Shown: positions 2,854 to 19,555 of the stretch, one piece after another | Numbering within the stretch: the first letter of the stretch is position 1 | How the letters are laid out: each line of letters starts with the position of its first letter | Source of the DNA: Bacteroidia bacterium | Lineage (GTDB): Bacteria > Bacteroidota > Bacteroidia > J057 | Reading direction: 5' to 3' | Assembly (NCBI GenBank): GCA_030430575.1 | Contig: JAUIKF010000041.1 | Coordinates: 1-64,000 of the forward strand | DNA length: 64,000 bases | Made by a program: the position numbers and the translations under genes | The notes under the pieces: generated by a model | Seen by the model: only the letters and a program-made list of their open reading frames with translations | Database searches by the model: none | What the model was told of the DNA's origin: nothing

Positions 2854-5160
2854 TCAGCGACGAATGATTTTAACCACCTTCACCTTCCCCTTTTGCTCAA
2901 TTTTCGCAAAGTATATGCCTGCACTTACAGGCCAGCCTTGGCCATTTTTTCCATCCCAGCGGAAGCCTGTGGCTGGCAGGCGCTTTTGAAAAATGACCGT
3001 GCCTCGGAGGTCAAATATGGTAAGAGAAACAGGCGATAGGGGGATGTTTTCCCAAGAAAAAGTAAGGTAATCACTAAAAGGGTTAGGGCCTATTTGTAAG
3101 GACAGAAACGGTTCCTCTATGCTTAGCCCAAATTCGTTGTTGCGATTAGGGCTGGCGAATGCCAAGGGGCCAAATGGTCCTATCCCATTGGGGAGGCGAC
3201 CGTAAGTGATATCGGTTTGCTGTGGACCATAGGTCAGGGTGTCTATGGGGGCAAAGCTCATGGTTTGAGCGCCAAAGATGCCGATCTGCTCTCCGCTTGC
3301 GGATAGCTTGAAATTGGCGTGGTCGTCGCCTTGAAAGCCGTCACCATCAGCCCAGATGAGTAGATAGGTGCCTGGCCGCATGGTTTTGGGTGGCAATTGC
3401 CACTTTTGGGGATCACCGAGGTCATCGGTAAGGTAAAGGTCGCCTAGGAAGACATCATTCGCATCTGCATTGTACAATTCGATCCAGTCGTCGTATTCCC
3501 CAAAATTATCCGCCAACACACTGTCATTGCTCGCGAGAAACTCATTGATGCGGAGTTTTGGTACGTCTGGGTTGATGGCGATTTGCAGCCAATCGCAATG
3601 CGGTTCGCGAGTGGTTTTCATGAGACTATCTGTGGCACTGACGTAGAAGTTCATGTTTCCTGTGGTAATGGAAGGGGTAAATTGAACTGACCAGATGCCA
3701 TCTCCTGCTATAGAATCGCCTTGTGTGCCGTCATCGCGTAGAGGAAGCATTTGATTGGCACCTCCATTCAGTTGGTAGATGAGTTCCACAGTCAGATTGC
3801 GTGTTTCGTCTTCCGGTTTGATTGTAAGGGTAAAGGGCTGTCCTGGGCCTGGGTGGTTGTGTCTGACAAAAGGAATAATGGGCGAAATGTCATTAACCAT
3901 AAGTTGACTAAGGGCGCTTGTTCGACGTGTCTTGATAAAGTCCTTCAGTCCGTATTTGACATGAGCGGTTAATGGTTGCTCAAAGGCATCGTCAAAGTCT
4001 TGAAGGGTGTACCCATAATCTAAAGATCGAAAAGTATCTGGAATAGCAGAAGGTCTGATCTTAATTCTCAGTGCATCCAGGATGGGATTCATTACGCTTG
4101 GGCGGAAATATTGGGTCAAATATTGGTCAAAATAGTAGGAAACCCGATCTCGATATTCGGGTACTTGCATCAACCGATTGTAGATGGGTCTTGGTTCGCC
4201 AGGGAAGGACCACCCGTAAATGTTTCTTCGACCCCAATCGACCACCGCCCAGTCAATTCCGAAGGTATTGTCCAGGTCAAAAGGGATGTATTCAAATTTG
4301 CCTGTAGCGGTATTGTGATAAAGATAAAAGTTGTTCTTATTGTAAATGGGGCCATCCCAATTGCCTGTGAGAATGTCAAACGCAATGACTTTGAGGTAGC
4401 TATTGACGTTGAACACCTTTTCCAATTCGCAAGGCAAGCTTGCGAGCGGTTCGTTGTTGAGGACATCAATAAAGGCGGCAAGGTCGCTGTAATCATCAGC
4501 TCCAGTATTGATCTTAAGCTCATAGGTCCTGCGCCCAAACTGAGAAACCTTATAGAGGTCAGGATCACTGCCTAGATATTCTAAGGTGGCGGGCCACAGG
4601 CATTTGTAGAGATTACCACCATTATTGCCAAAACGCGACCGCACAAAGTTCTCATCTATATGCTCAACATTGATGTATAAGCCCATGTATTGTCCATTTA
4701 CATATAGCTCAACATGATTGGACCGAGATCCACCAACCTCAATTTCTCTAAGAAAATCCCAACAAACTTTGGAACGTGCGATTGTAGGGTCATTATGTTC
4801 GCCATTCAGATTGAGTTTTTCCAATCCATGATAGTCTCGACCCGGTTGATAGGTGTTGAAAGATACCTTGAAGGACTTTTTGCCTGATTGGCGAGAGGTG
4901 TTCCCACGCAGGCGAAAGCCGATATTTTCCACCGTGTCACGCAGGTTTCCATTGTCAAAGACGAAGGTGGCGTGGTAGTGATAATCTGACCACATATTGG
5001 CGGGGTCCATGATAGCTGCAAAGGAGTCGGCAGGCAAGGTGATGTCGATGCGGGGCACTACATCATCGCGGAAGATTTCTCCTGAGGCGGGGAGCGTAAC
5101 TTGCGACTTCACTTCACTAAAGAAACACAGCAGTATAAGCAGAATGGTTGAAGCTTTCAT
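2854..5160 (-). CDS. CotH kinase family protein with lamin-tail domain and T9SS sorting signal
   Basis: A 768-residue secreted protein. A signal peptide (about residues 1-20) is followed by a CotH domain (about 45-430) with FRLRGNTSR, SFKVSFN, LNLNGEHNDPT and the acidic PFDLDNTFGIDW block. CotH proteins are atypical kinases, first known from spore coats; their role in Bacteroidota is unclear. Then comes an Ig-like stretch with DDGTQGDSIAGDGIWS, a lamin-tail domain (LRINEFLASND, DDWIELYN; about 535-650) and a C-terminal T9SS sorting domain (about 695-768, starting near IGPNPFSDYLTFSW and ending KVVKIIRR). The product is probably delivered to the cell surface by T9SS. I took the ATG at 5160 because it begins the signal peptide; an upstream in-frame start adds 13 residues without function. 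Confidence 0.87.
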   Translation of the reverse strand: MKASTILLILLCFFSEVKSQVTLPASGEIFRDDVVPRIDITLPADSFAAIMDPANMWSDYHYHATFVFDNGNLRDTVENIGFRLRGNTSRQSGKKSFKVSFNTYQPGRDYHGLEKLNLNGEHNDPTIARSKVCWDFLREIEVGGSRSNHVELYVNGQYMGLYINVEHIDENFVRSRFGNNGGNLYKCLWPATLEYLGSDPDLYKVSQFGRRTYELKINTGADDYSDLAAFIDVLNNEPLASLPCELEKVFNVNSYLKVIAFDILTGNWDGPIYNKNNFYLYHNTATGKFEYIPFDLDNTFGIDWAVVDWGRRNIYGWSFPGEPRPIYNRLMQVPEYRDRVSYYFDQYLTQYFRPSVMNPILDALRIKIRPSAIPDTFRSLDYGYTLQDFDDAFEQPLTAHVKYGLKDFIKTRRTSALSQLMVNDISPIIPFVRHNHPGPGQPFTLTIKPEDETRNLTVELIYQLNGGANQMLPLRDDGTQGDSIAGDGIWSVQFTPSITTGNMNFYVSATDSLMKTTREPHCDWLQIAINPDVPKLRINEFLASNDSVLADNFGEYDDWIELYNADANDVFLGDLYLTDDLGDPQKWQLPPKTMRPGTYLLIWADGDGFQGDDHANFKLSASGEQIGIFGAQTMSFAPIDTLTYGPQQTDITYGRLPNGIGPFGPLAFASPNRNNEFGLSIEEPFLSLQIGPNPFSDYLTFSWENIPLSPVSLTIFDLRGTVIFQKRLPATGFRWDGKNGQGWPVSAGIYFAKIEQKGKVKVVKIIRR

Positions 5161-5333
5161 AGGGTAAAGATAAGTAAATTGATAATGGTTAATTGTCAAT
5201 GGTTAATGAGAGGCATGCAGATGAGGCTGACTGGGTAGGTTAGGGGAATTTCCTTTCCATGAGCCAACAAATCTATTGTTTGTCGTGCGACAGAATTTAT
5301 TCTACATTTACTGAACAATGTGGTCCCTTTTTT

Positions 5334-6700: not shown

Positions 6701-7177
6701 ATGTCAAATTTGCCTCAAGAAAACCAACCTCAAACTGGCCGCCGTCGGGGCCTTCTTCCCCTTTGGATTAAGGTATTTGTCTGGATATTTATGATATGTG
6801 GCCTTATAATTCCTATTATGATTATTTCAGAATTGATGGGAATGGTAACTGAACCTCGAATTTACGGACTAGAATCGGCTTCGCCTTTTTCCTTAATGGG
6901 AATAGGTATTATACTAATTTATCTCCTCAAAGTAGTGGTGGCTGGTGGTTTATGGGTGGGGAAGGATTGGGCAGTAAAACTGGCTAAAATTGATGCTATA
7001 TTAGGCATGTGCATCTGTTTCTTGATGATGGCTGTCCTTACTTTCCAAGGCAGCGAGGACGGGATTATGCTCAATTTTCGACTAGAACTGATTGCTTTGA
7101 TTCCCTATTTCCTACAGATGCGGAAACTGGAATATGATTGGGACCATTTTCATGATGCGAGACGAGAAAAAAATTAG
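6701..7177 (+). CDS. Small four-segment membrane protein, unknown function
   Basis: A 158-residue inner-membrane protein. After a polar N-terminus rich in Gln and Arg, hydrophobic segments lie at about 20-47, 63-87, 95-115 and 126-140; the end is basic and charged (EYDWDHFHDARREKN). I do not recognise a family, although small proteins of this kind with a polar N-terminus are common in Bacteroidota. The ATG follows a CCCAAAACCCAACC leader directly. It may be in one unit with the DUF1801 gene, 39 bases upstream. Confidence 0.7.
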   Translation: MSNLPQENQPQTGRRRGLLPLWIKVFVWIFMICGLIIPIMIISELMGMVTEPRIYGLESASPFSLMGIGIILIYLLKVVVAGGLWVGKDWAVKLAKIDAILGMCICFLMMAVLTFQGSEDGIMLNFRLELIALIPYFLQMRKLEYDWDHFHDARREKN

Positions 7178-7231: not shown

Positions 7232-8200
7232 ATGAACCTCTTCAATCAAGTCCTCCCCAATTTCAGTGTGAAAGACGATGCTGGGACCCATCACCCAGAG
7301 AACTATCTGATGAACCCCGACCTGATCGGTGCGGTCAACGTAGCGATTGCGAGTGGGCAGCCTTTGCTGCTCACTGGGGAGCCAGGGACGGGCAAGACCC
7401 AACTGGCCTATAAGCTCGCTTACGAGCTGAATCAGAAAGACGCTAGCTTTCTTCCAGAACCCCTGGTTTTTAATACCAAAACCACCTCTACCGCCCAAGA
7501 ACTCTTCTATTTCTATGATGCTTTGGGACACTTTCAACAGGCCAATATCAAACAGCAAAATGGTCAACAAGAAGTGTCTCCTTTTACCTATATCAACCTG
7601 CAAGCCTTGGGGAAGGCCATTGCGCTTACTCATGCAGAAAACAGCAAATATCAAGCGTTGACGGGGCAAAATGAGAACAGAAATTCAGTTGTCCTAATTG
7701 ACGAGATTGACAAAGCACCCAGGGACTTTCCGAATGATATTTTGAATGAAATTGACAAAAGTGAATTTTCAATTAAAGAAGCGGAGAACTTCCTTGTTGA
7801 GAAAGGGGAGGGGGGCAAAATCTTGGTTATCATGACCAGTAATTCGGAGAAAAACCTTCCGGAACCCTTTCTCCGACGTTGCATATATTTTCATATTGAC
7901 TTTCCAGATGAAACGCAATTGTTGAAGATTGTAAAGCTCAAATTGGGCAAGAATTCTGCCTATTCTGATAGCGAATTGATTCGGCACTTTCTAGACATCC
8001 GCTCAGCCCTTTCGCGCAAAAAGCCTGCAACAGCGGAGCTTGTCACTTGGCTGAAGGTGCTGGAATTAGCGCAATTCATGGATGGTTCGTTGAATTTGAA
8101 GCGCCTATCTCGTAAGCAAAAGGACATTTTGCGATTGAGCTATTCGGCTATTGCGAAGAATAAAGAAGACCTGGAGCTGATTCGTAAGAAGTTTTTGTAA
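7232..8200 (+). CDS. MoxR-type AAA+ ATPase
   Basis: A 322-residue cytosolic AAA+ ATPase. Walker A GEPGTGKT is at 49-56, Walker B VVLIDEIDK at 153-161, the sensor 1 Asn lies in MTSNSEK (about 203-208), and an arginine finger candidate sits in FLRRCIYF (about 213-220). The helix-2 style insert and the order of motifs are those of MoxR ATPases, which act as chaperones that remodel vWA-domain partner proteins. The next gene, 42 bases downstream, encodes a membrane protein with a vWA-like cytosolic region, so the pair is probably a MoxR-vWA system. No classical third partner gene is adjacent. The ATPase motifs are intact. The substrate is unknown. Confidence 0.88.
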   Translation: MNLFNQVLPNFSVKDDAGTHHPENYLMNPDLIGAVNVAIASGQPLLLTGEPGTGKTQLAYKLAYELNQKDASFLPEPLVFNTKTTSTAQELFYFYDALGHFQQANIKQQNGQQEVSPFTYINLQALGKAIALTHAENSKYQALTGQNENRNSVVLIDEIDKAPRDFPNDILNEIDKSEFSIKEAENFLVEKGEGGKILVIMTSNSEKNLPEPFLRRCIYFHIDFPDETQLLKIVKLKLGKNSAYSDSELIRHFLDIRSALSRKKPATAELVTWLKVLELAQFMDGSLNLKRLSRKQKDILRLSYSAIAKNKEDLELIRKKFL

Positions 8201-8242
8201 TCTTGGAAGAGATTCAACCATCTGTGAATATTAATAACCATC

Positions 8243-11083
8243 ATGCCCATACAAGACCCCCATTCCCAACAAATAGCCTTCCCATTAGACGCGCTGCTTT
8301 CCCTGTGGGAATCAGAAGTGCGGGCGATAGACCCTGCCACTCATTTGCTGATTCAGCAAACGGTCCAGCAGTTTGGGATGGCCCTATTTCGCAAAAACGA
8401 CTTTGCGGGCATTCGTCGCCTGATCGGGCCAATCTTGGCCCAGAATGAGGAAGAGCAAGCCCTTTTCCAGGAAATATTTGACCAGCATTATCTTCCTTAT
8501 CTCAAGGAAAGGCTTGAGGTAGAATCAGTTCCTGACGTTGTAACGGAGGAAGAAAAGCCTTTGAGCGAACAGTTGAAGGGCCTTTCCAAAAAATGGCGGC
8601 CTATTTTGTATGTAGGATTGGTGGTGCTGTTGTTTGGGATGAATTTCTTCCTATTTGGTGATAAACTTACGACAACCAGTGCGCCTTCTTCTCAGTCAAC
8701 AGAAGTAGAACAGCTGTTGTCCGATGCCCCTATTTCCTCTTCTCCTTTTCCCAAGACGCAATCGGAGATACCGCTACCTCTACCGCTTTGTAACTTTAAT
8801 GCTGACTTGGACACCACTGGAGCCTTTAAGGTATTTCTCCGTCAGAAAAGCGCATCGATAGCCATTGATCAACCCTTATCCTTTTTTGCGCTGATAAACC
8901 CTTACTTTCATGACCGATATGCTGAGCAATACTTATCGCGGACTTGGGATTTTGGAGATGGACATTTTGCTGATAGCTTATACCCCACCCATACCTATAC
9001 GCAACCAGGGATTTATCCAGTTAAACAGACCACTTATTATGCTGATCATGATACAGCGATTTCTGGGGAAAAATTAGTCTTTGTCCCTTCTGTAAATCCC
9101 AATACCCAGGATTATCACGGTGGTTTTTTTACGGATATCCTGACCGAAGTCCAGAATCAAATAAAATTGCGGATTTTCATTTTACTTTTCTTGATCGTCT
9201 TCATTGCAGAAGGAGGCCTCAAATTGATCAAAAGGAGGTTCTCCAATTTGGCATTTAAAATGGAATTCCAGCAAAAGGGAGACGGTTCTTATGAACTGCC
9301 TCTTCCCCAACCTTCAGGCTACCTGAAGGATGAAGAAGCGCTTCAAGACCTTGCCAAGCAACTGAAAAAGCGGCGTATGGCTGGTACCCATCAGTTGGAT
9401 ATTCAAGATACCATCCACCAGACGATTCGCTCAGGGGGCCTGCCTCAACTGGTATATGCACAGCAGTCCAAGGAAGCTGAATATGTCTTTTTGATTGATG
9501 AAAGCCATGTAAACGACCATCGCGCACAAGTATTTCAGGAGTTGGTCTCCTTCCTGGAAAAGGAAGGCGTGGCATTGGAACGCTTTACCTTTCGAGGAGA
9601 TCCGCATACCTGCTATAATGCCTTTCATCCCGATGGGATTGAATTCCGAAAAATAACGATTAACCATCCCCACAGCCGTTTGGTGATTTTTTCAGAAGGC
9701 ACTGCTTTTGTGGATTCCATCTCTTTGGAACTGAAGCCTTGGGTGGCTGAATTATTTGACTTGTGGGAAGAGAAAATGCTTTTTACTCCCCTTGAAAGAC
9801 GTGCCTGGACCCGTAGAGAAGCTTCACTGGCTAGCTATTTCCAACTCCTCCCAGCTGACATAAAGACGCAATTAACGCTATTTGAGGAATTTGAGCAACC
9901 TTCCTTATGGGAGGAAACAGAAGCGGCTGCATCAGCGGAAACGACTTTGGCGGATTATGACTTTGAAGATGCCTTGGATGTGGAGGCCTTTTTGGGAGAA
10001 GACCTGACTCAATGGTTGGCAGCCACGATGGTGCATCCCCATCCGCGTTGGGAGATCGTGTTGGCAGTAGGGAGGGCCATAGAAGCTGAAATGCAAGCGG
10101 GAAAAACCGATTTCGAATCCGAGGGGCATTTCACCGTTGCCGCTTCCAAAGGGCAATTGGTCAATTTGGCGAATCTCTCCAAGCTCGCGCAGATTCCATG
10201 GATGGATGAAAAAAACTATCCCAAAAATGTCCGCCGGACCCTTTTGGATACGATGGATGAGGAGCTTGAAGTGTTGGCAAGGCAAACAGTTATTTCGCTA
10301 TTGGATCAAACAGTTGTGGAAAAAGATTCGGCTGCTTATGGTGAAAAGCGTTTGCACACCACGGTACAGGAAGCAGCCCTCCATCCTGACGATCAGCTAT
10401 TGCAAAAGAAACTGCGTTACCTCTGGCTACATGATCGACTGGATAGCTATCAAACGGATAAATTTAACCAAGACCGTTCATTGCGCGATACCCTGGCAAA
10501 ATGGAGCCGACTGATGCCATTGAGGGCAGCTGTCGTGGCTTTATTGATGGTTGGGGCAGGGAGTTTTAGTATACAAAAGTGGAATGAAACCTTGCCTCAA
10601 GCGACTGTCAGCCGGCATATTGAACCCTTGCCTGTAGGGGTAGCCGATGAGAACTTAGGGCTTTTGAGAGAAAGTTTATCGGCTTATGCGCTGCAGGACT
10701 ATGAAAGAACCGTAAGGGAAGTGGAAAAATTGGCAGAAATTACCTCAGAGGAGAATGGGCATCAGATTTTGGGGAAAATATATCAAATAAATGGGTTGTT
10801 ACACCTGGGTGATTATGAGCAAGCAAAATCGATCATCGAAGAATGTCTGGAGGAAGAAAATGCCAAGTACCTGCATCAAGATTTAGCAGAATTGTTGCAA
10901 TGGTATAATGCGCTTGTATGGCTAGGGAAAGGACATCCTGAAATAGCAAAGGTATTTCTCGAAGACATTATGGCCTTAGAAGGCAATCATTACCTCCACC
11001 AACGGGCTTTTCTTTTGTTATGGGACTTGAGGCGTCCATGGTATAAGAATAGAATTGTGCCATCGGCCTATATGGAAGGATGA
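8243..11083 (+). CDS. Three-segment membrane protein with PKD domain, degenerate vWA-like region and helical C-terminal repeats
   Basis: A 946-residue protein. Order: cytosolic helical region (1-118), membrane segment (about 119-139), PKD-like domain (about 205-282, with the hallmark WDFGDG at 235-240), membrane segment (about 309-325), vWA-like region (about 412-545), linker and helical part (590-740), membrane segment (about 758-776), and a C-terminal TPR-like helical part (800-946). In the vWA-like region the MIDAS-type DxSxS motif is degenerate: residues 419-423 read DESHV in FLIDESHVNDH. The topology places the vWA-like region on the same side as the N-terminus and the upstream MoxR ATPase, with PKD and C-terminal parts in the periplasm. 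I recall Bacteroidota proteins with this middle region fused to other C-terminal domains (for example SUMF1-like), but cannot confirm it here. Role unknown; force or signal transmission across the membrane is inference. Confidence 0.75.
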   Translation: MPIQDPHSQQIAFPLDALLSLWESEVRAIDPATHLLIQQTVQQFGMALFRKNDFAGIRRLIGPILAQNEEEQALFQEIFDQHYLPYLKERLEVESVPDVVTEEEKPLSEQLKGLSKKWRPILYVGLVVLLFGMNFFLFGDKLTTTSAPSSQSTEVEQLLSDAPISSSPFPKTQSEIPLPLPLCNFNADLDTTGAFKVFLRQKSASIAIDQPLSFFALINPYFHDRYAEQYLSRTWDFGDGHFADSLYPTHTYTQPGIYPVKQTTYYADHDTAISGEKLVFVPSVNPNTQDYHGGFFTDILTEVQNQIKLRIFILLFLIVFIAEGGLKLIKRRFSNLAFKMEFQQKGDGSYELPLPQPSGYLKDEEALQDLAKQLKKRRMAGTHQLDIQDTIHQTIRSGGLPQLVYAQQSKEAEYVFLIDESHVNDHRAQVFQELVSFLEKEGVALERFTFRGDPHTCYNAFHPDGIEFRKITINHPHSRLVIFSEGTAFVDSISLELKPWVAELFDLWEEKMLFTPLERRAWTRREASLASYFQLLPADIKTQLTLFEEFEQPSLWEETEAAASAETTLADYDFEDALDVEAFLGEDLTQWLAATMVHPHPRWEIVLAVGRAIEAEMQAGKTDFESEGHFTVAASKGQLVNLANLSKLAQIPWMDEKNYPKNVRRTLLDTMDEELEVLARQTVISLLDQTVVEKDSAAYGEKRLHTTVQEAALHPDDQLLQKKLRYLWLHDRLDSYQTDKFNQDRSLRDTLAKWSRLMPLRAAVVALLMVGAGSFSIQKWNETLPQATVSRHIEPLPVGVADENLGLLRESLSAYALQDYERTVREVEKLAEITSEENGHQILGKIYQINGLLHLGDYEQAKSIIEECLEEENAKYLHQDLAELLQWYNALVWLGKGHPEIAKVFLEDIMALEGNHYLHQRAFLLLWDLRRPWYKNRIVPSAYMEG

Positions 11084-13430: not shown

Positions 13431-13472
13431 TAAAAATTTGTCTTTTGTTAATTGATAAAAAAAATAAGCGAT

Positions 13473-14999
13473 ATGAAACGTTTGTTATTGTTGGCAGGGC
13501 TTGTCGCCTTCGCCATCAGTTTTTCAAGTATGGGCGCCTTTTACTTGCTGATGAAAGATAGTCCTACGGTCAAGATTGAGCATATCAGCAGCACCCCCAG
13601 TCAAAGTGCCTTATATACGATCGATGGTGATGGAACTGCCGTCCCTGTAGATTTTACCCAAACAGCTGAAAAAGTGATTGACGGAGTAGTTCATATTAAA
13701 TCTACCCATCTTTACCCTAGCCAAGGCAATCAGTCTTATCAGTTTCGGGAAATCCCATCGCCTTTTAAGGACTTTTTTGGAGATAATTTTGAACAATTTT
13801 TTGGACCAAGGATTGGTCCCAATTCCCCCAACAACCGAGCGCCCAATTCGCCTTCACGTGTAGGTACAGGTTCGGGCGTCATCATCAATGACGAGGGCTA
13901 TATTGTGACCAATAATCATGTCATCGCAGATGCGGATGACATTGAAGTCACTTTGCACGACAATCGGACTTATAAAGCTACTGTAGTCGGCACGGATCCC
14001 ACGACCGACCTTGCATTGCTCCAAATCAAAGAAAAAAACCTCCCGATGGTTCCTTTTGTCAATTCGGATGAAGTCAAAGTAGGGCAATGGGTCCTCGCGG
14101 TGGGTAATCCTTTCAGCCTAAACTCTACGGTCACAGCAGGGATCGTCAGTGCCAAAGGGCGCAATATCAATATTCTGAAAGAGCAATATGCCGTCGAGAA
14201 TTTTATTCAGACAGACGCAGCCATCAATCCTGGCAATAGTGGTGGCGCTTTGGTCAATCTGGATGGCGGATTGGTAGGCATTAACACCGCTATCGCAAGC
14301 CCTACGGGAGCTTATAGCGGTTATGGATTTGCGATTCCCACCAATATCGTCAGAAAAGTAGTAGAAGACTTGATCGCCTATGGTGTCGTACAGCGCGGCG
14401 TATTGGGCATTATGATTCGGACAGTTGATGGCAATTTGGCTAAAGAAAAAGACTTGGCGATCACTCAAGGAGTGTATGTCGATAGTTTGCTCGCCAATAG
14501 CGCGGCAGGGGCGGCAGGATTGCAGGTTGGCGATGTCATCACTGCCGTAAATAACCTTACGGTCAACTCCTCTGCCGAATTGCAGGGCATTATCGCGCGT
14601 CATCGCCCAGGTGAAGCAGTTGCTTTGCAGATCAGTCGATCAGGTAAAGAAAAAACGCTTGATGTCATCTTAAATAATCGAGCGGGGAATACCTCCATTA
14701 CCCATAAGGACACCCACGAGATGTGGAATATTTTGGGGGCCGAGGTAGAAGAGCTGGATCGTTCTCAGGCGGAAAAGCTTGAAGTAAATGGGGGCGTAAA
14801 AGTGAAAAAACTACGTGCAGGCAAATTGCGGAAGTTCACGCAAATGAGAGAGGGGTTCATTATCACGCATGTAGATGGAAAAATTGTCAAAACAGTAGAG
14901 GCCTTATTGGAGTTATTAAAAGAGAAAAAAGGCGGAGTAATGCTTGAAGGCATTTATGAGGACCTCCCTGGAAAATATTATTACGCTTTTGGCCTATAA
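13473..14999 (+). CDS. HtrA/DegP-family periplasmic serine protease
   Basis: A 508-residue exported protease-chaperone for misfolded envelope proteins. An N-terminal signal or anchor (residues 3-26) is followed by a trypsin-like domain with catalytic His149 (TNNHV), Asp179 (DPTTDL) and Ser256 (NPGNSGGAL). A first PDZ domain covers about 315-405 (GVLGIMI, LQVGDVITAVN); a second, shorter and more diverged PDZ-like region fills about 425-508. A low-complexity Phe/Pro/Asn loop (about 95-130) precedes the protease core, as in DegP. I used the ATG at 13473, since the upstream TTG adds only seven residues before the signal. The triad is intact, so it should be active. Confidence 0.93.
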   Translation: MKRLLLLAGLVAFAISFSSMGAFYLLMKDSPTVKIEHISSTPSQSALYTIDGDGTAVPVDFTQTAEKVIDGVVHIKSTHLYPSQGNQSYQFREIPSPFKDFFGDNFEQFFGPRIGPNSPNNRAPNSPSRVGTGSGVIINDEGYIVTNNHVIADADDIEVTLHDNRTYKATVVGTDPTTDLALLQIKEKNLPMVPFVNSDEVKVGQWVLAVGNPFSLNSTVTAGIVSAKGRNINILKEQYAVENFIQTDAAINPGNSGGALVNLDGGLVGINTAIASPTGAYSGYGFAIPTNIVRKVVEDLIAYGVVQRGVLGIMIRTVDGNLAKEKDLAITQGVYVDSLLANSAAGAAGLQVGDVITAVNNLTVNSSAELQGIIARHRPGEAVALQISRSGKEKTLDVILNNRAGNTSITHKDTHEMWNILGAEVEELDRSQAEKLEVNGGVKVKKLRAGKLRKFTQMREGFIITHVDGKIVKTVEALLELLKEKKGGVMLEGIYEDLPGKYYYAFGL

Positions 15000-15880: not shown

Positions 15881-15920
15881 GGCTTTCAATCGGACTCTCA
15901 GACGTTCAGACACTCAGACT
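15881..15920. repeat. Duplicated spacer of the T9SS tandem array (copy 1)
   Basis: GGCTTTCAATCGGACTCTCA and following TCAGAC words; nearly the same sequence occurs at 17706-17745 in the equivalent position after the sister gene. It contains the TCAGACGTTCAGAC words also found in the FolC linker. Confidence 0.8.
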
Positions 15921-17665
15921 TATTTCTTCACCACCAGCTTCTTCGAAGCAGTCTCCCACCCATCTGACAGATGCAGGACATACGCCCCTTCGGCAAATCG
16001 CCCCAGGTCGATTTCAGTTTGGAGGAGGTCCTCTTCCTTGTGCAGGGTGCGCTGGAGGATGGTGCGCCCTGAGGCATCAGCGACGCTGAGCTTGACTTCA
16101 CCGCTGAAGGCGGCGCCTAGGGAGAGCTGAAAGCGGTCGGGGGAGGTGTTGGGGAAGACTTTCAATAGTGGAGTGGGGGAGGAGGCTAGTTTCGAGGTTG
16201 ATTCCTCGAAATCGTAGCGAAGGAGGAGGGATTGCTCCTTTTCGCCCGCAAAAGACATTCCATCAAACTCCATTGTTCCTTTAAATAAGTGCCATAATTC
16301 TATCATGAACCCATGATGGCCAATTGGAATCATCTGCCGACAATACCAGTTTTTCCCTCTTACAAATTTTCGGCTTGTTGTTTCACCGTCTGTATCTATG
16401 CTCCAAAGGACACCTATTTGGTGGTAGTTTCTGATATTGGAAGGGGCAGAAATGACTTCACATTGATCAAAGAAAGTAAGAAGCTCATTTCTCATGGCTC
16501 TAAGGCTGAGTCCTGTCAATAAGTGAATGTGTCCATTTGGAGACACCATCATTCCTTTTATCTCATCAAAATTCCCTGACCCAAAGGTCTTTTGCCACAG
16601 TAACTCTCCCTGAGGAGAGAATTTTGCCAAAAACATTTGCAGTCCCTTCCCATGATAATCAATCAGCTCCCTTTTGCCTATATCCAATACCTGCGCATAA
16701 AAACCTGAGAGATACATATTCCCTTTGGCATCTACCTCAATGTGTTTCAAATACTGGGGAAAATTGTCCCATACTTTTGAAAACATGGGTTTCCCACTGG
16801 GATCGATCTTGATGAGGAAACTGTTGGTCGGATAAATTTCTTGCTGCCAATCTCCCACCTTGATATATTGATGTTTGTCAGAATTGGGGGCTACTGTTGA
16901 CAGGTGACCATAGATATAGGAGTTGCCATGAGGGTCTATTTTAAAAGAAATATGAGGATAACTATCCCCATAGCGATCAGGTCTCGGATCAAAATTTATG
17001 AGAAAGGGGATTTCAACAGCCTGAAAACCAATGGATTGCCCATCCTTGTTCAACTTATGGACCCATATAGCATAGGTATTTGAATCTTGTATAGCTGGAA
17101 GCTTTACAGGATATTCAATTTCGTTTTGGGGGGTTAACGGCGGAACAAAATCCATTTGCCCTATGACCCAAACCTCTCCATTGGTCAATATTTTTATTCT
17201 ATCTATTCCTTTGGTTGGGTATTTCTTTTGCCAAATAGGCCGCCCCATAGGGGTCTTTTTCTCTACATACGCACATTTAGAATCACATGAGAGGGAATAG
17301 CCATTTCCCGATTGATCATAGATAAGAGACTGAAAAGCCTTTAGTTTCTCATCCCAATGCCCTTCATCAGAAATGCGTCCGTCGGCAATGACGGTATGAT
17401 CTGCCAAATTTCCATTCTTATCGAAATGGGATAGATGATCGGTAAAATGATAAAATTCTTCCTTCCCAGATCCTGGATCCTGGGTTGCTATTTCCTCATT
17501 AATTGTATATAAAATGGTAGTTGCCTGATCATTCTTATCCGATATGGACTTGACAAAGGTTTTAAGGCCATAATCTATTGCGTAGCGAAAGTGCTGTGCG
17601 TTTGCCGAGGAGGCAAGTAGATGGAGGCAGATGGTCAGGATAAAAGGCTTGTAGAAGATGGACAT
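15920..17665 (-). CDS. Secreted repeat protein with T9SS sorting domain (paralogue 1)
   Basis: A 581-residue exported protein. A signal peptide (about 1-23, ending SANAQ) is followed by repeated motifs with a bladed beta-propeller look: short strands around Asp-rich turns such as KIDPSGKPMF, KIDPHGNSY, DAKGNMYLSGF and FSPQGELLWQKTFG. The last 75 residues form a T9SS sorting domain (PDRFQLSLG, SGEVKLSVAD, ending KKLVVKK). The function of the propeller is unknown; the product is expected on the cell surface or in the medium. It differs from the upstream sister (17745) throughout the propeller, yet the sorting domains differ at only about three positions over 74 residues, so that part has been kept similar by recent duplication or gene conversion. 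Confidence 0.8.
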   Translation of the reverse strand: MSIFYKPFILTICLHLLASSANAQHFRYAIDYGLKTFVKSISDKNDQATTILYTINEEIATQDPGSGKEEFYHFTDHLSHFDKNGNLADHTVIADGRISDEGHWDEKLKAFQSLIYDQSGNGYSLSCDSKCAYVEKKTPMGRPIWQKKYPTKGIDRIKILTNGEVWVIGQMDFVPPLTPQNEIEYPVKLPAIQDSNTYAIWVHKLNKDGQSIGFQAVEIPFLINFDPRPDRYGDSYPHISFKIDPHGNSYIYGHLSTVAPNSDKHQYIKVGDWQQEIYPTNSFLIKIDPSGKPMFSKVWDNFPQYLKHIEVDAKGNMYLSGFYAQVLDIGKRELIDYHGKGLQMFLAKFSPQGELLWQKTFGSGNFDEIKGMMVSPNGHIHLLTGLSLRAMRNELLTFFDQCEVISAPSNIRNYHQIGVLWSIDTDGETTSRKFVRGKNWYCRQMIPIGHHGFMIELWHLFKGTMEFDGMSFAGEKEQSLLLRYDFEESTSKLASSPTPLLKVFPNTSPDRFQLSLGAAFSGEVKLSVADASGRTILQRTLHKEEDLLQTEIDLGRFAEGAYVLHLSDGWETASKKLVVKK

Positions 17666-17705: not shown

Positions 17706-17745
17706 GGCTTTCAATCGGACTCCCAGAAGTTCAGACACTCAGACT
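17706..17745. repeat. Duplicated spacer of the T9SS tandem array (copy 2)
   Basis: Matches 15881-15920 with few changes (GGCTTTCAATCGGACTCCCA, then AAGTTCAGACACTCAGACTT). The period between the copies is about 1.8 kb, equal to one gene plus spacer. Confidence 0.8.
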
Positions 17746-19457
17746 TACTTCTTCACCACCAGCTTCTTCGAAGCGGTCTCCCACCCATCTGACAGATGTA
17801 GGACATACGCCCCTTCGGCAAATCGCCCCAGGTCGATTTCGGTTTGGAGGATGTCTTCCTCCTTGTGCAGCGTGCGCTGCAGGAGCGTCCGGCCAGCGGC
17901 GTCAGCGACGCTGAGCTTGACTTCACCGCTGAAGGCGGCGCCGAGGGAGAGCTGAAAGCGGTCGGGGGAGGCGTTGGGGAAGACTTGGAGGGGATCTTCT
18001 AAAAGGGTTGTATTAGGAGTAATAAAAGTCCCTGGGAGATTAAAATGAACCAAATAACCATTTGAAGATTTGGAGTCACTTAACATAAAACCTCCCAAAT
18101 GACAAGTATCATAAGGCTCCACAATGGCCCATAGATTATTTGGGATATGGGGGATAGACATTCTGCTATAATCCGAAAGAGCTTCTCTATAAAACAGTTC
18201 TCCATTACCATGATAAGCAGCAAAATAGGTTTTCCTAGCCGTAGTATTTTCTAAGAATTGACCCTCCCAATAAACATTTGCAGAATCTCTATAATTGCTG
18301 ACTCCACAAACTCTCCTCTCCAAGTCAAATAGAACAGAGAAATAGATTTCGTTTTTAGGTCCTACTTCCAGCCCTGTAAAATAGCCACTTCTACGGCAGC
18401 CGAATGTTTTGTGCCAGATTAATCCACCATCTGGGGAAAGCTTTGCAAGGCAATAAGGTTCCTGTAGGACTGTAGGATTTGGGGGGCTTTTTTGGGAAAA
18501 ACCGTTTAAAGATCCACTGATGGTACCGCCTATTATGAGATTATCTTCATTGTCAATAGCCAATTCATCTATATGCAATGGAAATTGATTTGGGTTGATA
18601 ATATGGGTGGTAAGTATTTCTCCTTTTAAAGACATATTTAGGATAAATACATCTTTGGAGTCTTTAAAATAAATGGCCTGACCTCCAATATACATAGGGC
18701 TTGAAGGTAGATTGTGAACCATTTTATCATATTTGGGTGATCGAATATCTCCCCATAGATAAATGCCATCATTCGGTCCAACTGCTAGACGGAGTTTCCC
18801 TCTTGCTGCGTCAGGTAGTGTCACAATTTTTCCCCATTTGATCCTGCCATCACTTTTTAGCATTACCAAGCAGTTGTTTCCAATATCCTGGGGCCTAATA
18901 GAAACCTTTTCCTTTCCAAATTGAATACTGAACTCAGTGTTTGGTAAATCTTCCTTTTTGTAGGCATACATGTGTGCAAGGCATCCCATGAGGAGAATGT
19001 CTCCATTCTTTAGTACATGAATTTCCATCCCCATATCCAAGAGTGGGGTATCCCAGACATGTTGCCAGAGTGGTCTACCTTGAATTGTCTGCTTTTCAAC
19101 AAACATCTGCCTATTGTCTGTTGATGAAGATATCATACCCGTTAAAATAAGGTTTCCCTGATCGTCCAAGGCGATGGCATTTATGAATTTATGTAAGGGA
19201 ATAGGTCGCTCTAAAATCAATTTCCCCTCAGGATTAAAAACAGTTAAATAACTTGTGTTAGGGGTCTCTGTACGCCTTGATTCTTTAATAATAATGGCAT
19301 AGGCCCTGCCTTGCTTATCAGAGGTAAATCCTCGAAGAAATCGAGGTGGATATTTCACCTCGATCCAATGACTAATCTCCTGGCTTTTTCCAAACTGAGG
19401 AGCCATTAAGAGACAAAAGACAATGCTCAAAAAAAAAGCGTAGCTTACTGATTTCAT
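17745..19457 (-). CDS. Secreted repeat protein with T9SS sorting domain (paralogue 2)
   Basis: A 570-residue exported protein, sister of the gene at 15920. Signal peptide about 1-25 (MKSVSYAFFLSIVFCLLMAP), then propeller-like repeats with DDQGNLILTG, DNEDNLIIGGT, LSPDGGLIWHKTFG and related turns, then the same C-terminal sorting domain ending KKLVVKK. The start at 19457 begins the signal peptide; an in-frame upstream Met adds 12 residues. Both paralogues describe text-like navigation of value strings only in their turns; no enzyme motif is visible. The two genes are co-directional and 80 bases apart. Confidence 0.78.
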   Translation of the reverse strand: MKSVSYAFFLSIVFCLLMAPQFGKSQEISHWIEVKYPPRFLRGFTSDKQGRAYAIIIKESRRTETPNTSYLTVFNPEGKLILERPIPLHKFINAIALDDQGNLILTGMISSSTDNRQMFVEKQTIQGRPLWQHVWDTPLLDMGMEIHVLKNGDILLMGCLAHMYAYKKEDLPNTEFSIQFGKEKVSIRPQDIGNNCLVMLKSDGRIKWGKIVTLPDAARGKLRLAVGPNDGIYLWGDIRSPKYDKMVHNLPSSPMYIGGQAIYFKDSKDVFILNMSLKGEILTTHIINPNQFPLHIDELAIDNEDNLIIGGTISGSLNGFSQKSPPNPTVLQEPYCLAKLSPDGGLIWHKTFGCRRSGYFTGLEVGPKNEIYFSVLFDLERRVCGVSNYRDSANVYWEGQFLENTTARKTYFAAYHGNGELFYREALSDYSRMSIPHIPNNLWAIVEPYDTCHLGGFMLSDSKSSNGYLVHFNLPGTFITPNTTLLEDPLQVFPNASPDRFQLSLGAAFSGEVKLSVADAAGRTLLQRTLHKEEDILQTEIDLGRFAEGAYVLHLSDGWETASKKLVVKK

Positions 19458-19555
19458 AGGATTTCGTAGGTTAGGTAAACGATGTTTGATCATTCAGAAA
19501 ACAAACTGCCGCTATATTCAAGATACAAAAAATCGCAGATTCCACAGAACTAAAA

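What the first reader, a model, noticed from the sequence alone, without database searches (positions are those of the whole stretch)
7232..11083. MoxR ATPase with a transmembrane, PKD- and vWA-like partner
MoxR ATPases remodel vWA partners. Here the vWA-like region is degenerate at the metal site (DESHV) and embedded in a protein that crosses the membrane three times, with a PKD domain and helical repeats outside. This suggests an ATP-driven cytosolic remodeler acting on an envelope-spanning sensor or transmitter. I know of Bacteroidota proteins with a similar middle part and variable C-termini, so the end may be the exchangeable effector or receptor part.
Basis: partly seen in the sequence, partly recalled or inferred. 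Interest (0 to 1): 0.76.

Follow-up and report, generated by a model that had tools for sequence, protein, structure and literature searches.

The report
Stripped-down envelope-spanning MoxR–vWA pair
Two neighbouring genes encode an ATP-driven motor and its membrane-spanning partner; they descend from a known family of predicted bacterial defence systems, but this lineage has lost the family's third gene and its exchangeable outer domain, and a second, separate lineage has the same pared-down layout.

Summary
7232-8200 encodes an intact MoxR-type AAA+ ATPase. 8243-11083 encodes a 946-aa protein: CoxE-type helical domain, TM1, PKD, TM2, degenerate vWA, helical linker, TM3, short helical C-terminus.
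[quoted passage not shown] 2020). Relatives lie beside the same MoxR. Most also have a third gene, a CHAT, caspase or trypsin domain fused to Pfam iSTAND, and their partner continues after TM3 into 520-1130 aa of variable domains.
The window pair lacks both. It has no iSTAND neighbour, and the partner ends 171 aa after TM3 in a helical module shared only with three orthologues. The window-type vWA cores form a supported clade (100/97) nested among iSTAND systems. In all five genomes that carry a window-type MoxR–vWA pair, iSTAND genes number exactly one fewer than vWA genes. A second lineage shows the same reduced layout in a genome with no detectable iSTAND; an AU test rejects grouping the two (p = 0.00014).
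The degenerate metal site is family-wide, not special here. Structure predictions were uninformative, and function is untested.

The parts
7232..8200 (+). MoxR-type AAA+ ATPase, 322 aa
   Evidence: Pfam AAA 44.6 bits and AAA_5 37.1 bits, both over cut-off; 40-58% identical to 18 MoxR genes of related loci
7376..7399 (+). Walker A, GEPGTGKT (MoxR residues 49-56)
   Evidence: nearly all positions invariant in 19 aligned MoxR proteins
7688..7720 (+). Walker B, VVLIDEIDKAP (MoxR residues 153-163)
   Evidence: L155, D157, E158, D160-P163 invariant
7871..7882 (+). paired arginines, arginine-finger region, LRRC (MoxR residues 214-217)
   Evidence: R215 and R216 invariant; the role is inferred from the MoxR family
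8243..11083 (+). envelope-spanning vWA partner, 946 aa
   Evidence: homologous core in 12 of 22 genomes of the order, all in one family
8261..8542 (+). CoxE-type helical N-terminal domain (residues 7-100), predicted cytosolic
   Evidence: profile of residues 1-100 of 19 relatives matches the N-terminus of CoxE-like protein L140 at E 7e-6 and L141 at 1.3e-3 among 616 ORFs
8603..8659 (+). TM1 (residues 121-139), inside to outside
   Evidence: hydropathy 2.27; over 16 relatives 58 K/R before and 20 after
8858..9028 (+). PKD domain (residues 206-262), predicted periplasmic
   Evidence: PKD and PKD_4 over the Pfam cut-off; PKD in 13 of 28 relatives
9173..9229 (+). TM2 (residues 311-329), outside to inside
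   Evidence: hydropathy 2.51; over 16 relatives 38 K/R before and 83 after
9395..9922 (+). degenerate vWA domain (about residues 385-560), cytosolic; strand-1 D419 at 9497-9499, strand-4 E485 at 9695-9697
   Evidence: profile match to CoxE-type vWA proteins; motif columns; domain limits approximate
9923..10462 (+). helical linker after the vWA (about residues 561-740), probably the 'vWA-L' of the published systems
   Evidence: conserved columns in A2; the name vWA-L is by analogy with PMC8195603, not tested
10511..10567 (+). TM3 (residues 757-775), inside to outside
   Evidence: hydropathy 1.78; charge bias weak, 45 K/R before and 33 after over 16 relatives
10568..11080 (+). short helical C-terminal module (residues 776-946), predicted periplasmic; takes the place of the variable domains of relatives
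   Evidence: homologous to the C-termini of L068, L069, L070 and of no other ORF examined; no Pfam family

Best explanation
This is a derived two-gene form of the iSTAND-type MoxR-vWA conflict systems. It kept the constant parts (MoxR motor, CoxE-type/vWA adaptor, envelope-spanning scaffold) and lost both the iSTAND gene with its CHAT/protease and the variable outer domain. Most likely mechanism: the cytosolic CoxE-type and vWA parts dock a MoxR ring. The PKD domain and the helical C-terminus, both outside, bind or monitor something in the periplasm. ATP-driven remodelling of the vWA part is then coupled through the three membrane helices to that outer part, or the reverse. With no effector or protease of its own, the pair probably acts by changing the conformation or assembly of an envelope protein, not by killing through a dedicated effector. 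Shown by computation: gene content, domain order, likely topology, ancestry, the missing parts, and the same reduced layout in a second lineage. Inferred: MoxR-partner binding, ring formation, direction of signalling and the biological role.
For: Relatives' third components pass or reach the Pfam iSTAND (PF19995) cut-off. The vWA core of the window, L068, L069 and L070 forms a clade with support 100/97, beside the iSTAND-type systems L071, L073 and L074. iSTAND genes equal vWA genes minus one in the five genomes with a window-type MoxR-vWA pair: G000 2/3, G014 2/3, G011 1/2, G013 3/4, G010 3/4. C-terminus after TM3 is 118-171 aa against 524-1129 aa in the MoxR-linked TM relatives, whose domains include LamG with CBM96, WD40 with WG repeats, FGE and an amidase fold. 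Second lineage L161: MoxR plus an 862-aa partner, flanked by genes on the other strand, no iSTAND detected in a 99% complete genome; grouping with the window type rejected, AU p 0.00014. MoxR motifs intact.
Against: Components can be unlinked: in G007 MoxR, vWA and CHAT-iSTAND lie on three contigs, and in G006 an iSTAND stands alone. So an iSTAND from another operon could serve the window pair in trans. The MoxR tree does not recover the window type as a clean clade, since L075 falls inside, although the clade is not rejected (AU p 0.20). With L161 added, the vWA-core support is 94/97. TM3 has only a weak charge bias. iSTAND profiles are weak, so a divergent third gene could be missed. No ligand, substrate or phenotype is known.
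Confidence: 0.55

Rival explanations
1. Trans-acting member: the pair is still part of a ternary conflict system and borrows the CHAT-iSTAND proteins encoded beside its paralogues, acting as a shared motor or helper with a fixed receptor.
For: All five genomes with a window-type MoxR-vWA pair also encode an iSTAND elsewhere. In G011 the window-type MoxR is the only MoxR of this subfamily, and the other locus, L088, has CHAT-iSTAND and vWA but no MoxR. Components are unlinked in G007.
Against: Every such iSTAND already lies beside another vWA gene. The reduced layout also exists in G558, where no iSTAND is detected. Presence in 5 of 10 iSTAND-bearing against 0 of 3 iSTAND-less genomes of the family is too few to test.
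Confidence: 0.25
2. Housekeeping chaperone: after losing its conflict parts, the pair matures or repairs an envelope complex, as NorQ/NorD or RavA/ViaA do for respiratory enzymes.
For: Fixed instead of variable C-terminus; CoxE-type N-terminal domain and vWA; intact ATPase motifs.
Against: No conserved client gene beside the pair in its orthologues; found in only 5 of 13 genomes of the family; the same genome has separate CoxE-type vWA and MoxR genes closer to known chaperone pairs (L140, L152).
Confidence: 0.15
3. Decaying remnant or dominant-negative regulator of a full ternary system.
For: Loss of two functional parts; a metal site missing its second Asp in the window protein.
Against: The degenerate metal site is family-wide. 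Reading frames and ATPase motifs are intact in copies from other genomes whose MoxR proteins are only 55-58% identical to the window's, and the C-terminal module is conserved among them. A remnant should decay.
Confidence: 0.05

Closest known systems
iSTAND MoxR-vWA ternary systems (Kaur et al. 2020, PMC7159879)
   Same: MoxR without long extensions, CoxE-type helical N-domain on the vWA protein, TM segments in part of the systems, presence in Bacteroidetes, PF19995 iSTAND next to paralogous loci
   Different: no iSTAND or peptidase gene; no variable C-terminal domain; PKD insert (the word PKD does not occur in that paper); metal site degenerate family-wide, whereas the paper names degenerate sites only for the FtsH and beta-propeller subsystems
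VMAP, iSTAND2 and TERNS3 ternary systems (PMC7159879, PMC8195603)
   Same: MoxR-vWA core
   Different: different third components; none found beside the window pair by Pfam scan of its neighbours
DGR-linked MoxR conflict systems (Dore et al. 2024, PMC10907252)
   Same: proposal that the end of the vWA protein is a sensor, in some cases periplasmic
   Different: no C-type lectin/FGE domain in the window protein; a retroelement was not searched for
NorQ/NorD, RavA/ViaA, CoxD/CoxE chaperone pairs
   Same: MoxR plus CoxE/vWA co-chaperone logic
   Different: their partners are not multi-pass proteins with a PKD ectodomain (from general knowledge); this pair is nested among the conflict systems
MoxR-vWA-beta-propeller systems (Pfam bpMoxR PF20030)
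   Same: MoxR clade
   Different: 15.7 bits against a cut-off of 27; no propeller in the window protein

Membership tests
iSTAND MoxR-vWA ternary system | MoxR-clade AAA+ ATPase of the subfamily | tested here: met
   groups with MoxR genes of iSTAND-bearing loci, apart from CoxE-linked MoxR
iSTAND MoxR-vWA ternary system | vWA protein with CoxE-type helical N-terminal domain | tested here: met
iSTAND MoxR-vWA ternary system | third component with iSTAND domain (PF19995) | tested here: not met
   none in the window operon; the genome's two iSTAND genes over cut-off belong to two other operons
iSTAND MoxR-vWA ternary system | variable C-terminal effector domain on the vWA protein | tested here: not met
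   170-aa helical module shared by the orthologues; no Pfam family
iSTAND MoxR-vWA ternary system | TM segments (about 28% of published systems) | tested here: met
   three segments
iSTAND MoxR-vWA ternary system | role in biological conflict | not testable with these tools
   predicted only, for the published systems too
vWA domain | homology to known vWA domains | tested here: met
   A2 against CoxE-like A4, hhalign E 2.4e-7; A4 members L139 and L140 pass VWA_CoxE
vWA domain | intact DxSxS...D metal site | tested here: not met
   D419-E-S-H-V, second Asp is E485; degenerate in the whole family
vWA domain | Rossmann-like fold | tested here: inconclusive
   single-sequence model, mean pLDDT 37
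bpMoxR beta-propeller ternary system | bpMoxR profile and beta-propeller on the vWA protein | tested here: not met
   15.7 bits against 27; no propeller

The most novel reading that the evidence does not exclude
The MoxR-vWA core of a predicted immune system can work alone: at least two bacterial lineages have separately reduced it to a two-gene, ATP-driven device that spans the inner membrane and moves or reads an outer domain, with neither a dedicated sensor NTPase nor a killing effector.
Probability: 0.35. Interest if true: 0.65.

Novelty: new variant of a known kind. Interest (0 to 1): 0.48.

Why it matters
No mechanism of an iSTAND-type MoxR–vWA system was found to be established in the papers searched; the published roles are predictions. 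A two-gene version without effector or third component would be the smallest unit on which to test what MoxR does to its vWA partner, and whether the motor pushes across a membrane. The second reduced lineage argues that the core is useful alone. It also bears on the disagreement over whether the end of the vWA protein is an effector (Kaur 2020) or a sensor (Dore 2024).

Tried and rejected
Genome-wide peptide search with the whole partner returned only unrelated PKD proteins. AlphaFold of the vWA part and of the C-terminus from single sequences was uninformative; the relatives found here do not come from the tools whose loci structure prediction accepts, so no alignment was submitted. PDB profile search gave no significant fold for the partner (best E 0.026, to a different molecule; a VWA2 chain at E 0.99). 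The viral-collection search with MoxR gave no relative of use. Considered and dropped: neighbouring genes as a third component. The 158-aa TM protein at 6701-7177 has no Pfam family and no counterpart beside the orthologous pairs. The trypsin/PDZ protease at 13452-14999 is separated from the pair by another gene and looks like a DegP/HtrA protease. Considered and dropped: the degenerate metal site as a special trait of this protein. First idea that the variable end lies in this protein: rejected. Supplementary lists of Kaur et al. could not be opened, so I cannot exclude that such two-gene loci are listed there.

Full report
1. What is there. Two + strand genes 42 bp apart: MoxR ATPase 7232-8200 (322 aa) and a 946-aa partner 8243-11083. 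The ATPase passes Pfam AAA and AAA_5, and 19 aligned relatives keep the ATPase motifs. The partner has a CoxE-type helical N-domain, TM1 at 121-139, PKD at 206-262, TM2 at 311-329, a vWA-like domain at about 385-560, a helical stretch, TM3 at 757-775 and a short helical C-terminus. Across 16 relatives with this layout the basic residues flanking TM1 (58 before, 20 after) and TM2 (38 before, 83 after) put the N-domain and vWA inside and PKD outside. TM3 is less clear (45 before, 33 after). An outer C-terminus is supported by relatives that carry domains usually found outside the cytoplasm after TM3: LamG with CBM96, an amidase fold, CarboxypepD_reg.

2. Is it vWA? The window protein alone gives only E 0.02 to VWA_CoxE. 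A profile of 25 relatives (A2) found, besides family members, 400-440 aa CoxE-like proteins in 395 genomes of the phylum. Two of these lie beside a MoxR gene, and two (L139, L140) pass the VWA_CoxE cut-off. hhalign of A2 against them gives probability 93.5, E 2.4e-7. So the domain is vWA by descent. Its metal site is degenerate: D419-E-S-H-V and S-E485-G. No member of the family has DxSxS, the strand-1 acid is D or E throughout, and the strand-4 Asp is kept in only about half. The degenerate site is thus a family trait.

3. What family. Plasmid relatives sit in operons with CHAT, caspase or trypsin genes and MoxR. In the window's taxonomic family, most relatives lie in an order of about 500-aa CHAT protein, MoxR, vWA protein. 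Pfam identifies the second half of the CHAT, caspase and trypsin proteins as iSTAND, PF19995. These are the predicted iSTAND MoxR–vWA ternary conflict systems (PMC7159879). In 22 genomes of the order the core occurs in 12, all in one family. In two further samples of 395 genomes it was rare, with a separate cluster in another class of the phylum, some loci with a TIR gene beside them.

4. What is different here. The window pair and the loci L068 (G011), L069 (G014), L070 (G013) and L149 (G010, contig ends inside the vWA gene) have MoxR and vWA but no iSTAND gene. In the five genomes (G000, G011, G014, G013, G010), vWA genes and iSTAND genes number 3/2, 2/1, 3/2, 4/3 and 4/3; one iSTAND in G013 is borderline (24.2 bits against 24). 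The partner of the four complete copies ends 118-171 aa after TM3, against 524-1129 aa in relatives with linked MoxR and three TM segments. These short ends are homologous to each other (E 1e-5 to 1e-19 for most pairs) and a profile of them hits nothing else collected. So both variable parts of the published systems are absent and a fixed end has taken their place.

5. Ancestry. The vWA cores of the four complete copies are one clade (support 100/97; 94/97 in a tree with L161) beside L071, L073 and L074, inside the iSTAND family. In the MoxR tree L075, a full system, falls among them, but a window-type clade is not rejected (AU p 0.20). Losses followed by exchange, or more than one loss, are both possible.

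6. A second case. In G558, another taxonomic family of the same class, L161 holds MoxR and an 862-aa partner flanked by genes on the other strand. The genome (99% complete) shows no iSTAND by two searches and this MoxR only. Joining it with the window type is rejected (AU p 0.00014). So the reduced form looks to have arisen at least twice, unless a very divergent third gene escapes the profiles.

7. Modularity. In G007 MoxR, vWA and CHAT-iSTAND lie on different contigs. L081, L085, L087 and L088 have CHAT-iSTAND and vWA without adjacent MoxR. These show that linkage is not obligatory and leave the trans rival open.

8. Mechanism. Established MoxR–vWA pairs use ATP to remodel clients through the vWA co-chaperone (reviewed in PMC7159879). 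By analogy the cytosolic part of the window protein docks the MoxR ring, and remodelling is coupled through the membrane to PKD and the helical end. Whether information flows outward (a motor moving an envelope protein) or inward (a sensor) cannot be decided here. Because no effector or protease belongs to the pair, I favour envelope remodelling or sensing over a self-contained killing system. Steps shown: anatomy, family, losses. Steps inferred: binding, direction, role.

9. Verdict. Observation confirmed; interpretation partly right. New variant of a known kind, of moderate interest. The main new points are the joint loss of the third gene and the variable end, its conservation in five genomes (the short end seen in four, because one copy is cut by its contig), and its second occurrence.

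Noticed in passing
L073:2526-7064 (G006:C443): vWA paralogue ending in an Amidase_3 domain whose usual zinc-ligand motifs are not apparent, so probably an inactive peptidoglycan amidase fold on the outer side of the membrane.
   Followed up: partly
L081, L085, L087, L088: A supported clade (98/99) of vWA proteins, with L089, that have CHAT-iSTAND but no adjacent MoxR: the reverse reduction of the window's.
   Followed up: partly
L147, L148, L077 (G007): MoxR, CHAT-iSTAND and vWA genes unlinked in one genome, while a genome of the same genus (G008) has them in one operon.
   Followed up: partly
G010:C410 (L053, L076): vWA gene interrupted by one TGA and one TAA: a probably broken full system.
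   Followed up: no
15920-17665 and 17745-19493, - strand: Two adjacent secreted proteins of different sequence end in an almost identical stretch of several dozen residues, as if the sorting tail had been copied recently.
   Followed up: no
2854-5199, - strand: CotH kinase with lamin-tail domain and Por-type secretion tail.
   Followed up: no
L071:5940-11207 (own genome, C90): Full iSTAND-type system whose vWA protein ends in LamG and CBM96 carbohydrate-binding domains, suggesting a glycan-binding outer part.
   Followed up: no
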